A stretch of 64,000 nt of DNA, from the NCBI RefSeq assembly GCF_002085925.2, contig NZ_CP053562.1:3795501-3859500 (forward strand), read 5' to 3'. Each line of letters starts with the position of its first letter. Position 1 is the first letter of the stretch. The notes beneath the pieces were generated by a model. That model ran no database searches, was not told the origin of the DNA, and saw only the letters and a program-made list of their open reading frames with translations. The position numbers and the translations under genes are program-made. Source of the DNA: Thioclava electrotropha (lineage in GTDB: Bacteria > Pseudomonadota > Alphaproteobacteria > Rhodobacterales > Rhodobacteraceae). Below, piece after piece: positions 12,657-18,109 of the stretch.

Positions 12657-13688
12657 TCAGCGCGCCGCCATCGCCTCCAGCGGCAGCGGCGTGATCCGCG
12701 AGGCGTGACCGGCGGTGCCGAAAGCCTCGAACCGCGCCTTGCAGAGCTGCTGCATCAGCGCCTTGCCCTCGGTGAGGTATTTGCGCGGATCGAATTCACC
12801 GGGCGTCTCGGAGAGGACCTTACGGACGCCTGCCGTCATCGCCATACGGTTGTCGGTGTCGATATTCACCTTGCGCACGCCCGAGCGGATACCGCGCTGA
12901 ATTTCCTCGACCGGCACGCCCCAGGTCGGGCGCATATCGCCGCCATAGCTGTTGATCATCTGCCGCAGATCCTCGGGGACGGAGGACGAGCCATGCATGA
13001 CCAGATGTGTATTCGGAAGACGGCGGTTGATCTCTTCGATGACATTCATCGCGAGAATGTCGCCATCGGGCTGACGCGTGAACTTGTAGGCGCCGTGGCT
13101 CGTGCCCATCGCGACCGCGAGCGCATCGACGCCCGTTTCGCGCACGAAGCGTTCGGCTTCTTCGGGATCGGTCAGCAGCTGCTCTTCCGAGAGCTTCTCG
13201 GTCGCACCGTGGCCGTCTTCCTGATCGCCCATGCCGGTCTCGAGCGAGCCGAGCACGCCTAGCTCGCCTTCGACCGAGACGCCGCAGGCATGCGCCATCT
13301 CGACCACGCGCGCGGTGATATCGCGGTTATAGGCGTAATCGGCGGGCGTCTTGCCATCGGCCAGCAGAGAGCCGTCCATCATCACCGAGGTAAACCCGTG
13401 CTGGATCGCAGTGGCGCAGGTGGCCAGATCGCTACCGTGATCGAGATGCATACAGACCGGAACTTCGGGGAAGGTCTCGACCAGCCCGTCGATCAGCCGC
13501 GCCAGCAAGCGATCCCCCGCATAGGCCCGCGCGCCCCGCGAGGCGGCAAGGATCACTGGCGCATCGGCCTCGCGCGCGGCGGTCATGATCGCGAGCCCCA
13601 TCTCCATGTTCGAGATGTTGAAGGCGGGCACGGCATAGCCGTTCTCCGCCGCGTGATCGAGCAACTGGCGCAGGGTGATGCGGGCCAT
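12657..13688 (-). CDS. fba: Class II fructose-bisphosphate aldolase (CbbA-like)
   Basis: A 343-residue zinc aldolase. The catalytic Asp and first zinc His lie in HLDHG (residues 81-85); further motifs are ELGVLGSLE, AVAMGTSHGAYK, LVMHGSSSVP and RKVNIDTDNR. The length and motifs match the Calvin-cycle CbbA subtype, which can also condense DHAP with erythrose 4-phosphate. It is the last gene of eryH-eryI-fbp-fba, three bases after fbp. This context suggests sedoheptulose-1,7-bisphosphate synthesis in addition to fructose-1,6-bisphosphate chemistry (inference). Confidence 0.9.
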   Translation of the reverse strand: MARITLRQLLDHAAENGYAVPAFNISNMEMGLAIMTAAREADAPVILAASRGARAYAGDRLLARLIDGLVETFPEVPVCMHLDHGSDLATCATAIQHGFTSVMMDGSLLADGKTPADYAYNRDITARVVEMAHACGVSVEGELGVLGSLETGMGDQEDGHGATEKLSEEQLLTDPEEAERFVRETGVDALAVAMGTSHGAYKFTRQPDGDILAMNVIEEINRRLPNTHLVMHGSSSVPEDLRQMINSYGGDMRPTWGVPVEEIQRGIRSGVRKVNIDTDNRMAMTAGVRKVLSETPGEFDPRKYLTEGKALMQQLCKARFEAFGTAGHASRITPLPLEAMAAR

Positions 13689-13691
13689 AGG

Positions 13692-14660
13692 TCAGGTCTC
13701 CTCCGATAGATATGTCTTGATGATGTCGACCTCTTCCGCCGCGCCGAACACGAGCGGCACGTTCTGGTGCGGCGCGTCCGGCACGAGATCGAGAATGCGC
13801 GTGGTGCCATCGGTGGCGTGCCCGCCCGCCGCTTCGATCAGGCAGGCGATCGGCACCGCCTCATAGGCCAGCCGCAACCGCCCTTCGCGATAGCCCTCGC
13901 GCCGGTCCGCCGGATAGAGGAACGCGCCACCTTTCAGCAGGATACGGTGCAGTTCACCGACCGCCGCCGCCAGCCAGCGCATGTTGAAATCGCGCCCGCG
14001 CGGACCATCCGCACCGGCGCGCAGCTCGGCGGCCCAGCGTTGCAGCCCCGGGCTCCAATGGCGCTCGTTCGAGGCGTTGTAAGCGATGGTCGACGCTTTA
14101 GCCGACAGCCGGACATCCTGCGCCGTCATGCGGAAATCGCTGCCATCATAGGTCGCGATCTGCACCCCCTGCCCGGCCACGAACCCGAAATCCAGCGAAT
14201 GCCCGAAGGAGGCATAACCCGCCGCGACCGCCTCCGAACCCGGACGCCGGAAATCGGCGGGCCCGGTCGGATAGATCGCGAACAGCATCCCGAGCGGCGC
14301 GCCGATACCGATCGAGCCCGACCCGTCGATCGGATCGATCGCGAGGTCGAATTGGCCCTCCGGGTCGAGCAACTCGACCTCTTCGGCCTCTTCCGACAGC
14401 ATGTGCCGCACGCCCAGCCCGGCGAGCGCCGCAAGGATGTGGTCATGCGCGCCGACATCGAGCGCCTTCTGCACATCGCCGCTTTCGTTCTGACCGCAGG
14501 GCGCGGCAGGATCGCCGGGCAACCGACCCGCCGCGAGCCGCTGCTCGATCGGGGGCAAGGCGGCGGCCAGCGCGGCGATAATCTCTCCAAGCCCGCCAGC
14601 AGGCAGGCAGTCACGCAGGTACGCCGCCTGCGAGGGACGGTCGTTCGGCAAGGTCAGCAT
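13692..14660 (-). CDS. fbp: Class I fructose-1,6-bisphosphatase family enzyme with altered active-site loop
   Basis: A 322-residue FBPase class I protein. Conserved parts are GDVQKALDVGAHD (residues 61-73), metal-binding SEE (89-91), DPIDGS (109-114), NMRWLAAAVGELHRIL, KGGAFLYP and YREGRLRLAYE. The usual SSNID after DPIDG is replaced by SGSIG (114-118), so the Asn and Asp of that loop are missing; plant SBPases also vary here. The substrate may therefore be fructose or sedoheptulose bisphosphate. It lies between eryI and fba in one operon. Confidence 0.87.
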   Translation of the reverse strand: MLTLPNDRPSQAAYLRDCLPAGGLGEIIAALAAALPPIEQRLAAGRLPGDPAAPCGQNESGDVQKALDVGAHDHILAALAGLGVRHMLSEEAEEVELLDPEGQFDLAIDPIDGSGSIGIGAPLGMLFAIYPTGPADFRRPGSEAVAAGYASFGHSLDFGFVAGQGVQIATYDGSDFRMTAQDVRLSAKASTIAYNASNERHWSPGLQRWAAELRAGADGPRGRDFNMRWLAAAVGELHRILLKGGAFLYPADRREGYREGRLRLAYEAVPIACLIEAAGGHATDGTTRILDLVPDAPHQNVPLVFGAAEEVDIIKTYLSEET

Positions 14661-16059: not shown

Positions 16060-16102
16060 GAACCTGTGACCACTGCTAGCGTCCGCGCCATAGGAGGATC
16101 CC

Positions 16103-18109
16103 ATGCTCGATCACGCTCAAGTTGCGGCCAAAGCCGCTATCGACCCTGAAAACTTTGCCCTCGCCAATTGTCTGCGGGCGTTGGCCATCGACGCGGTGAA
16201 TGCCGCCAATTCCGGCCATCCCGGCGCGCCGATGGGCATGGCGGATGCGGCCACCGTGCTGTTTCGCAACCACCTGAAATTCGACGCCTCGGCCCCCGAC
16301 TGGCCCGATCGCGACCGCTTCGTGCTGTCCAATGGGCATGCCTCGATGCTGCTCTACGGACTGCTGCATCTGACCGGCTACGAAGACATGACGCGCGACC
16401 AGATTCGCAATTTCCGGCAGTGGGGGTCGATCACGGCCGGCCATCCGGAATGGGGCCATGCGAAGGGCGTCGAGACCACGACCGGTCCGTTGGGTCAGGG
16501 CTTGGCAACCGCCGTCGGTATGGCGCTGGCCGAGCGCGCGCTCGCCGCCGAGTTCCCCGGCCTCGTCGATCACCGCACATGGGTGATGCTGGGCGACGGC
16601 TGTCTGCAGGAAGGGATCGGACAAGAGGCGATCTCGCTTGCGGGGCATCTCGGGCTGGGCAAGCTCAACCTGCTTTACGACGACAACGACATCACCATCG
16701 ACGGGCCGACCTCCGTGTCCTTCTCGGAAGACGTTCCGGCGCGGCTTGCGGCCTGCGGCTGGCATGTGATCCGCTGCGACGGCCATGACGCCAAGGCGCT
16801 GGACGAGGCGATGGCGGCCGCGAAGGCCGAGACCGCGCGGCCCAGCTTGATCGCGATGAAGACGGTGATCGGCTTCGGCTCGCCCAATCGGGCGGGCACG
16901 GCGAAGGCGCATGGCGCCCCGCTGGGAGACGAGGAAGGCGCGCTGGCCAAGCAGGCGCTCGGTTGGGAGGCTGCGCCCTTTGAAATTCCCGAGAACCTCG
17001 CCGCAGCCTGGGCCGCCATCGGGGCCCGTGGCACGCAGGCCCGCGCGGAATGGGAAGACGCGCTCGCGGCCTCCGGCAAGGCCGAAGAGTTCACCGCCTG
17101 TGTCGAGGGCAAGCTGCCCGAAGGCTACGCCGCCGCCGTCGAGACTGCGCGCGCCGAGCTGTTCGAGACCCCGCAATCTGTCGCGACCCGCAAAGCCTCC
17201 CAGATCGCTCTGGAGCATCTCGCTAAGGCGGTGCCTGCGATGATCGGCGGCAGCGCCGATCTCACCGGCTCCAACCTGACGCGCGTCGCCGCCGTCGACT
17301 CGTCGTACACCGCCGCCAAACCGGGTCGCTATATCGGCTACGGTGTGCGCGAGTTCGGCATGGCGGCGGCGATGAACGGTCTCGCGCTGCATGGCGGCTT
17401 CAAACCCTATGGCGGCACGTTCCTCGTGTTCTCGGATTACGCGCGCAACGCGATCCGCCTGTCGGCGCTGATGGGGCTGGGCGTGACATATGTGATGACC
17501 CACGATTCCATCGGGTTGGGCGAGGACGGCCCCACCCACCAACCGGTCGAACATCTGGCCTCGCTTCGCGCGATCCCGAACCTCAACGTGTTCCGCCCCG
17601 CGGATGCGGTGGAGACGCTGGAGGCGTGGGATATCGCGATCCGGTCGACGGGCACGCCGTCTTTGCTGGCGCTGTCGCGACAAGGGGTGCCGCAGCTGCG
17701 CGGCGCGGGGGATGAGAACCTGACCGCGCGCGGCGCCTATGTGATCCGCTCCTTCGGGGAAGGCCGCGATGTGACGCTTCTCGCGACCGGGACCGAGGTG
17801 GCGCTGGCCGTGGAGGCCGCAGAGGCGCTGCATGCGGACGGCGTCAATGTCGCTGTGGTCTCGATGCCGTGCTGGGAGTTGTTCGACGCGCAGTCCGAGG
17901 AGTACCGGGCCGAAGTTCTCGGCACCGTGCCGAGGATCGCTGTCGAGGCCGCGTCGGCCTTCGGCTGGACCCGCTACGTCGCGCGCGAGGCGGATGTGAT
18001 CGGCATGCCGGGCTTCGGCGCCTCGGCTCCGGCAGAGCGGCTCTATGCCGAGTTCGGTATCACCAAAGATGCGATCGTTGCGCGCGCCAAGGCGCTGATC
18101 GCGGGCTAA
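16103..18109 (+). CDS. tkt: Transketolase
   Basis: A 668-residue full-length transketolase. The thiamine diphosphate site GDGCLQEGIGQEA is followed by DDND; early His residues occur in SGHPGAPMG and AGHPEWGH, and the pyrimidine domain has MTHDSIGLGEDGPTHQPVEH. It transfers two-carbon units between sugar phosphates and consumes or makes erythrose 4-phosphate. Placed divergent to eryHI-fbp-fba and behind AGGAGGA, it looks like the entry point of the erythritol product into the pentose phosphate pathway. It may be a cluster-specific paralogue; the rest of the genome is not visible. Confidence 0.93.
   Translation: MLDHAQVAAKAAIDPENFALANCLRALAIDAVNAANSGHPGAPMGMADAATVLFRNHLKFDASAPDWPDRDRFVLSNGHASMLLYGLLHLTGYEDMTRDQIRNFRQWGSITAGHPEWGHAKGVETTTGPLGQGLATAVGMALAERALAAEFPGLVDHRTWVMLGDGCLQEGIGQEAISLAGHLGLGKLNLLYDDNDITIDGPTSVSFSEDVPARLAACGWHVIRCDGHDAKALDEAMAAAKAETARPSLIAMKTVIGFGSPNRAGTAKAHGAPLGDEEGALAKQALGWEAAPFEIPENLAAAWAAIGARGTQARAEWEDALAASGKAEEFTACVEGKLPEGYAAAVETARAELFETPQSVATRKASQIALEHLAKAVPAMIGGSADLTGSNLTRVAAVDSSYTAAKPGRYIGYGVREFGMAAAMNGLALHGGFKPYGGTFLVFSDYARNAIRLSALMGLGVTYVMTHDSIGLGEDGPTHQPVEHLASLRAIPNLNVFRPADAVETLEAWDIAIRSTGTPSLLALSRQGVPQLRGAGDENLTARGAYVIRSFGEGRDVTLLATGTEVALAVEAAEALHADGVNVAVVSMPCWELFDAQSEEYRAEVLGTVPRIAVEAASAFGWTRYVAREADVIGMPGFGASAPAERLYAEFGITKDAIVARAKALIAG

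What the first reader, a model, noticed from the sequence alone, without database searches (positions are those of the whole stretch)
12657..18109. Aldolase, bisphosphatase and transketolase in the erythritol cluster may form a sedoheptulose-bisphosphate route
In Brucella erythritol growth bypasses fructose bisphosphatase, so fbp and fba beside eryHI need another explanation. A CbbA-type aldolase can join DHAP and erythrose 4-phosphate to sedoheptulose 1,7-bisphosphate; an FBPase/SBPase would release sedoheptulose 7-phosphate, and transketolase would give pentose phosphates. That would consume the pathway product without transaldolase. Gene order eryH-eryI-fbp-fba with divergent tkt supports this; substrate use is inference.
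Basis: inference. Interest (0 to 1): 0.7.

Follow-up and report, generated by a model that had tools for sequence, protein, structure and literature searches.

The report
Erythritol cluster with sedoheptulose-phosphate bypass genes
A bacterium's erythritol-eating gene cluster carries its own aldolase, bisphosphatase and transketolase, which most likely turn the pathway's four-carbon product into a seven-carbon sugar phosphate; that route is already known from Brucella, but here the gene set is fuller and belongs to a distinct enzyme branch.

Summary
Confirmed in a Thioclava genome: eryH-eryI-fbp-fba with divergent tkt, beside eryABCD and eryEFG; catalytic motifs intact. Brucella's ery cluster carries erythritol-induced fbp and fba (PMC3522698); in B. 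suis, Fbp hydrolyses sedoheptulose 1,7-bisphosphate and a fba tal double mutant cannot use erythritol (PMC11005471). This genome has one TalC-type protein (TAL_FSA family; found in 196 of 198 genomes of the family, including all 17 with eryI), GlpX, no PFK, and a separate RuBisCO operon with its own fbp, tkt and fba. The cluster copies are therefore dedicated paralogues. New here: the cluster Fbp belongs to a distinct class I branch whose signature a Brucella intermedia Fbp shares; 7 of 11 low-scoring FBPases lie near eryI, against 0 of 61 others; twelve Rhizobium loci pair the module with an OiaK-like kinase instead of eryABC, so the shared node is probably erythrose 4-phosphate. In a flux model SBPase alone can replace transaldolase without yield gain; FBPase can only with Gnd. 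Substrates in Thioclava are inferred.

The parts
12657..13688 (-). fba: class II (type B, CbbA-like) fructose/sedoheptulose-bisphosphate aldolase
   Evidence: 65% identical to the genome's own cbbA
13692..14660 (-). fbp: class I bisphosphatase of the distinct E4P-locus branch (DPIDGSGSIG motif)
   Evidence: 43% identical to own cbbF
14722..15186 (-). eryI: D-erythrulose-4-phosphate isomerase (RpiB family)
   Evidence: NF051858 over cut-off
15183..15968 (-). eryH: TpiA-like tetrulose-phosphate isomerase
   Evidence: PF00121; place next to eryI
15969..16102 (.). divergent eryH/tkt promoter region with three TAACA/TGTTA elements
16103..18109 (+). tkt: transketolase, 59% identical to own cbbT and 56% to the third tkt
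6087..7688 (-). eryA: erythritol kinase (FGGY family)
   Evidence: 83-99% identical to eryA of the nearest loci
4577..6313 (-). eryB ORF: FAD-dependent polyol-phosphate dehydrogenase (GlpD-like); the gene probably starts further in
3645..4715 (-). eryC ORF: tetrulose-phosphate epimerase (xylose-isomerase-like TIM barrel)
   Evidence: PF01261
2614..3549 (-). eryD: SorC/DeoR-type sugar-binding regulator
   Evidence: PF04198
1824..2591 (-). DeoR-type regulator; relatives carry its 59-66% homologue directly upstream of eryH in many loci
8822..12494 (+). eryE (8822-10405), eryF (10285-11451), eryG (11544-12494): sugar ABC transporter
   Evidence: read from sequence and conserved in related ery loci; no family scan made

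Best explanation
EryA, EryB, EryC, EryH and EryI turn erythritol into D-erythrose 4-phosphate (E4P). The cluster Fba joins E4P with DHAP to sedoheptulose 1,7-bisphosphate (S1,7bP). The cluster Fbp removes one phosphate irreversibly and gives sedoheptulose 7-phosphate. The cluster Tkt turns this with glyceraldehyde 3-phosphate into two pentose phosphates and then joins xylulose 5-phosphate to more E4P, giving fructose 6-phosphate, which can enter central metabolism. The route runs beside the genome's TalC and works as a one-way exit for E4P. Shown here: genes, intact motifs, paralogy, linkage, a separate Fbp branch, stoichiometric sufficiency. Shown by others in Brucella: Fbp activity on S1,7bP, erythritol induction of fbp and fba, need for Tal or Fba. 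Inferred: substrates, flux and induction in Thioclava.
For: Dedicated paralogues: second fbp-PRK-tkt-GAPDH-fba-RuBisCO operon, third tkt, GlpX, no PFK. Linkage: low-scoring FBPases near eryI 7 of 11, other FBPases 0 of 61; GlpX in all 11 genomes with the low type, so a gluconeogenic FBPase is present without it. A Brucella intermedia Fbp shares the Gly signature and is 47% identical to the window Fbp; B. suis Fbp acts on S1,7bP. Twelve Rhizobium loci carry tkt-fbp-fba-eryH-eryI beside an OiaK-like kinase and without eryABC in the fetched DNA. Flux model: without Tal, SBPase alone gives growth on E4P.
Against: TalC is present, so the route is not needed for stoichiometry, and the model gives no yield gain over Tal. 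In the 17 eryI loci, 10 lack fbp, 13 lack fba and 14 lack tkt nearby. 16 of 77 cluster-type loci show no eryH/I, eryABC or OiaK in the fetched DNA (some are short contigs), and 4 of the 11 low-type FBPases are not near eryI. G010 has the cluster fbp but no class II aldolase match in its genome. No activity data exist for these enzymes; the B. suis Fbp sequence itself was not read. The tal fba result in Brucella would also follow from an oxidative-loop model.
Confidence: 0.7

Rival explanations
1. Plain gluconeogenesis: cluster Fba and Fbp only turn triose phosphates into fructose 6-phosphate during growth on erythritol, as the 2012 Brucella paper proposed.
For: Same enzymes and the F1,6bP activity of B. 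suis Fbp; that was the reading in PMC3522698; no PFK in the genome, so Fba would run in this direction.
Against: E4P gives fructose 6-phosphate through Tkt and Tal with zero FBPase flux in the model; B. suis without fbp, glpX and bbp grows on erythritol; GlpX is present; the module also sits at OiaK-type loci.
Confidence: 0.15
2. Oxidative loop: Tkt joins E4P and xylulose 5-phosphate; fructose 6-phosphate returns to xylulose 5-phosphate through the oxidative pentose pathway with loss of CO2; Fba and Fbp refill the loop from trioses by FBPase activity.
For: In the flux model Gnd plus FBPase allows growth without Tal and SBPase, and fails without Fba, so it also predicts the Brucella tal fba result.
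Against: Lower pyruvate yield, 0.800 against 1.150 per E4P.
Confidence: 0.07
3. Hitchhiking: fbp, fba and tkt came along with a transferred block and have no special role in erythritol use.
For: The main cluster genes are 80-91% identical to those of Thalassospira, another family, while a second Thioclava (L049) has a 55-79% identical, differently ordered version, so transfer is likely.
Against: The association recurs in different orders in Paracoccus, Mameliella, Rhizobium and Ensifer loci, and 0 of 77 cluster-type loci hold a PRK or RuBisCO match at 50% identity or more.
Confidence: 0.05

Closest known systems
Brucella ery cluster with fbp-fba and the S1,7bP bypass (PMC3522698 passages; PMC11005471 abstract, passages, sections 21-22)
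   Same: eryABCD, DeoR, tpi-like and rpiB-like isomerases, fbp and fba in one cluster; class II Fba; Fbp with the same Gly signature in a Brucella intermedia sequence
   Different: In Brucella fbp-fba lie on the opposite strand and the passages read name no transketolase in the cluster; here fbp-fba follow eryI in one operon and tkt is divergent. Bbp, the broad phosphatase of Brucella, was not looked for
Calvin-cycle cbb operon (own copy, L094)
   Same: fbp, tkt and fba together; S1,7bP chemistry is expected of such operons (recalled)
   Different: No PRK match in the window; Fbp is another branch; 43-65% identity
Clostridial S1,7bP pentose pathway (PMC7029132, listing and start of abstract only)
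   Same: S1,7bP links pentose phosphates with the rest of metabolism
   Different: There a phosphofructokinase acts in genomes without an annotated transaldolase; here a phosphatase acts, no PFK was found and a TalC is present
Aldolase gene in Mesorhizobium ery loci (PMC3599248, passages)
   Same: fructose-bisphosphate aldolase gene between eryR-tpiB-rpiB and eryC, and beside rpiB in Brucella
   Different: the passages name no fbp or tkt there

Membership tests
Brucella-type S1,7bP bypass of erythritol catabolism | Erythritol-to-E4P genes present (eryA, B, C, H, I) | tested here: met
Brucella-type S1,7bP bypass of erythritol catabolism | Class II fba and class I fbp in the ery cluster | tested here: met
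Brucella-type S1,7bP bypass of erythritol catabolism | Fbp of the same branch as the Brucella enzyme | tested here: met
   Gly signature and 47% identity with a Brucella intermedia Fbp; the B. suis sequence was not read and P0011 was not put in the tree
Brucella-type S1,7bP bypass of erythritol catabolism | Fbp hydrolyses and Fba forms S1,7bP | not testable with these tools
   needs enzyme assay
Brucella-type S1,7bP bypass of erythritol catabolism | Growth on erythritol without transaldolase but not without both tal and fba | not testable with these tools
   needs mutants
Brucella-type S1,7bP bypass of erythritol catabolism | fbp and fba induced by erythritol | not testable with these tools
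   needs expression data for Thioclava
Transaldolase-free S1,7bP pathway | No transaldolase in the genome | tested here: not met
   one TAL_FSA match, 207 bits; TalC versus FSA role by recalled residues only
Calvin-cycle cbb operon | Linked phosphoribulokinase and RuBisCO | tested here: not met
   both PRK-family matches of the genome lie outside the window; RuBisCO gene seen in L094, not searched genome-wide
Class I fructose-bisphosphatase equivalog (NF006780) | Score above the curated cut-off | tested here: not met
   353.6 against 358 bits; Pfam FBPase domains are met

The most novel reading that the evidence does not exclude
The E4P-locus Fbp branch is a true sedoheptulose-1,7-bisphosphatase that arose from a Calvin-cycle CbbF-type ancestor and travels, with fba and tkt, as an E4P-exit cassette between unrelated tetrose-producing pathways: erythritol in Paracoccaceae, Roseobacteraceae and Thalassospira, isoapionate-type loci in Rhizobium and genome G153.
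Probability: 0.3. Interest if true: 0.65.

Novelty: new variant of a known kind. Interest (0 to 1): 0.4.

Why it matters
It extends an erythritol route known from Brucella to free-living relatives with a fuller gene set. It offers a sequence marker (Gly at window Fbp positions 118, 120 and 235) for finding E4P-linked bisphosphatases that databases call FBPase. It also shows by a flux model that a tal fba double mutant does not by itself separate the S1,7bP route from an oxidative loop; a strain without transaldolase and 6-phosphogluconate dehydrogenase would.

Tried and rejected
Rejected: 'no transaldolase', with the caution that the short TAL_FSA family joins TalC and FSA. Rejected: a misplaced Calvin operon; the real one is L094. 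Considered and left: Fba acting on erythrulose 1-phosphate in a natural formaldehyde cycle, an idea raised in PMC10733421 (passages); no formaldehyde genes were looked for, and the kinase, dehydrogenase and transporter genes speak for erythritol use (my guess, about 0.01). A motif shared by the eryA and tkt-eryH promoters was not found: 0 TAACA/TGTTA upstream of eryA.

Led nowhere or mended: a longest-ORF caller gave many antisense ORFs in GC-rich loci and was replaced by a codon-position score. A first fba count of 58 of 77 and tkt count of 50 used best-hit labels; one search counts 68 and 51. In the Fba tree the genome's CbbA lies in a well-supported set of 5 rows apart from the window Fba, but the non-cluster rows as a whole did not form one group.

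Rows dropped or defined: L016, L060, L081, L087, L116 and L121 were left out of the Fbp alignment (too short, or a stop inside the stretch as my script extended it), so the 32%-identical G098 enzyme is not in the tree; 109 sequences became 102 after identical ones were merged. The branch was defined by Gly 118; Gly 120 and Gly 235 are the independent columns. The tree is a quick one with a long-branch warning; one PRK-linked enzyme (L084, Mycobacterium) falls outside the CbbF-like group. The PRK count includes one partial match at a contig end (G019, 45.8 bits).
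Full report
What is there. The window lies in a genome of 4.4 Mb in two contigs. It is a Thioclava: the cluster Fbp is 99% identical to Thioclava sp. JE_KL1 and 97% to T. sediminum. On the minus strand run eryH, eryI, fbp and fba; tkt is divergent; the transporter genes eryEFG come next, and eryA-eryB-eryC-eryD and a DeoR-type regulator lie beyond them. fbp and fba are 3 bp apart and eryI overlaps eryH by 4 bp. Fba keeps the HLDHG, HGAYKF and VMHGSSS motifs, and Fbp keeps SEE, DPIDG and YE (their catalytic roles are recalled).

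Own-genome background. The genome holds a second set, fbp-PRK-tkt-GAPDH-fba-RuBisCO-CbbQ, in a cbb operon, a third transketolase, GlpX, one TalC-type protein and no PF00365 phosphofructokinase. The cluster copies are 43% (fbp), 65% (fba) and 59% (tkt) identical to the cbb ones. They are dedicated paralogues, neither the only copies nor recent duplicates. NCBIfam names the TalC family fructose-6-phosphate aldolase; I read it as transaldolase from a Glu and a Phe recalled as diagnostic, and from four loci where its 66-67% homologue follows tkt-fbp-fba (L053, L054, L056, L058).

What is already known. The Brucella abortus study PMC3522698 (passages) places fbp and fba (BAB2_0364, BAB2_0365) in the ery cluster and reports induction by erythritol of 2.5 to 3.6 fold on array and RNA-seq, and of transaldolase of about 2 fold (4.4 by PCR); it read this as gluconeogenesis. 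PMC3599248 (passages) notes an aldolase gene in Mesorhizobium and Brucella loci. PMC11005471 (abstract, passages, sections 21 and 22) shows for B. suis that Fbp acts on S1,7bP and F1,6bP; that loss of fba, or of fbp, glpX and bbp, leaves growth on erythritol; that loss of tal leaves growth with a lag; and that the fba tal double mutant does not grow. PMC11508834 (passages) repeats the double-mutant result in Rev1. In the held library no paper has both Thioclava and erythritol or both erythritol and apionate.

Distribution in 198 genomes of the family, one per genus. eryI scores at least 171 bits in 17 genomes; the next match is at 129. A TAL_FSA protein is in 196 genomes, including all 17. Class I FBPases number 72 in 64 genomes and fall into 61 at 115 bits or more and 11 at 93 or less. 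Of the 11, 7 lie within 12 kb of eryI and 0 within 5 kb of PRK; of the 61, 0 lie near eryI and 35 near PRK (Fisher p 2e-7, related genomes not being independent). By genome, 8 of 17 with eryI have the low type against 3 of 181 others. GlpX is in all 11 low-type genomes (19 of the 20 genomes examined). Around the 17 eryI genes fbp is present in 7, fba in 4, tkt in 3 and a transaldolase-family gene in 2 (G039, G133); 8 have none of these, and only this genome has fbp, fba and tkt together. The bisphosphatase, the irreversible step, is the most frequent partner. The route is an option, not a rule.

Related loci. One search kept the best 80 of 560 relatives. Of the 80, 77 are of the cluster type: fba within 2.5 kb in 68, tkt within 6 kb in 51, both in 50; eryH or eryI in 61, eryABC in 39, an OiaK-like kinase in 12, talC in 4, PRK or RuBisCO in 0, and none of eryH/I, eryABC or OiaK in 16. 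Twelve Rhizobium loci (two of them in each of two strains) have tkt-fbp-fba-eryH-eryI with a GntR regulator, an SDR dehydrogenase, an OiaK-like kinase and a BKACE enzyme, and no eryABC in the fetched DNA; one locus, L064, was scanned (kinase 281 bits, cut-off 700) and the others follow by similarity. In G153 the same Fbp type lies about 3.6 kb from an OiaK homologue (502 bits, cut-off 700), with a reading frame 29% identical to RuBisCO between them (that frame was not family-scanned). I recall that such kinases belong to isoapionate pathways that yield L-erythrulose 1-phosphate; PMC10733421 (passages) describes LerI and DerI turning that into E4P. If so, the module follows E4P rather than erythritol.

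The Fbp branch. An alignment of 102 class I enzymes splits into 79 and 23. The 79 were defined by Gly 118, and all 79 also have Gly 120 and Gly 235, where the 23 have Asn (22 of 23) and Ala (23 of 23). They form one group with SH-aLRT 100 and a long stem, joined at 100 with 10 CbbF-like sequences, 7 of them PRK-linked, against 13 others that include one PRK-linked enzyme (quick tree, midpoint root, long-branch warning). A Brucella intermedia Fbp, P0011, has the same Gly residues and is 47% identical to the window Fbp and 40% to the window genome's CbbF. That ties the branch to the enzyme tested in B. suis, with the limit that the B. suis sequence was not read.

Regulation. The 134 bp between eryH and tkt hold three TAACA/TGTTA elements (shuffle mean 0.49, p 0.009; 1 of 954 window tiles reaches 3). 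Five relatives counted (L007, L008, L009, L012, L013) have 3 to 6 in the 200 bp upstream of eryH. The eryA upstream region has none. I infer one shared regulator for eryHI-fbp-fba and tkt, possibly the DeoR protein, separate from that of eryA.

Stoichiometry. A small flux model with E4P as sole carbon (pentose and hexose demand 0.05 each) grows with Tal whatever the phosphatases do. Without Tal, SBPase alone restores the same pyruvate yield, 1.150 per E4P; FBPase alone restores growth only with Gnd, at 0.800; with neither phosphatase there is no growth. The bypass gives no yield gain over Tal; its likely gain is an irreversible pull on E4P (inference). Removal of Fba and Tal stops growth in the model with Gnd present too, so the Brucella double mutant does not by itself prove S1,7bP flux; a background without Tal and Gnd is needed.

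Verdict. Gene order confirmed. Added here: dedicated paralogy, the linked tkt and sometimes talC, a separate Fbp branch with a signature, and its link to another E4P-type pathway. New variant of a known kind; interest 0.4.

Noticed in passing
window 1824-18109; L007, L008, L049: The main cluster genes are 80-91% identical to Thalassospira (another family), while Thioclava sp. SK-1 (L049) has a 55-79% identical, differently ordered version: likely horizontal transfer.
   Followed up: partly
L009-L012, L017, L021, L023, L024, L031, L038, L052, L053, L056, L058, L059, L115, L117; L077-L079: Lumazine synthase (ribH-type) genes lie in or near many of these loci, and a DHBP synthase (ribB) gene lies near tkt-fbp-fba in three Phyllobacteriaceae-type loci. 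A link between riboflavin genes and tetrose use is unexplained.
   Followed up: no
window 7890-8858: A small, probably exported protein is encoded between eryA and eryE and is kept at that place in many related ery loci; its family was not scanned.
   Followed up: no
L069, L076: In Ensifer and Sinorhizobium loci the module tkt-fbp-fba-deoR-eryH-eryI is followed by transhydrogenase genes pntA-pntB and a chemoreceptor gene.
   Followed up: no
G010:C1:1052000-1071000 (L100); L040, L042, L047, L060: The cluster fbp occurs without fba nearby; in G010 no class II aldolase was matched in the whole genome. A class I aldolase may serve; not searched.
   Followed up: partly
window 18224-20846: Downstream of tkt, on the minus strand, lie a dehydratase/hydratase-like gene, a sugar kinase and a 2-hydroxyacid dehydrogenase, kept beside tkt in L005 and L006 only among the loci; names are from reading the sequence.
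   Followed up: no
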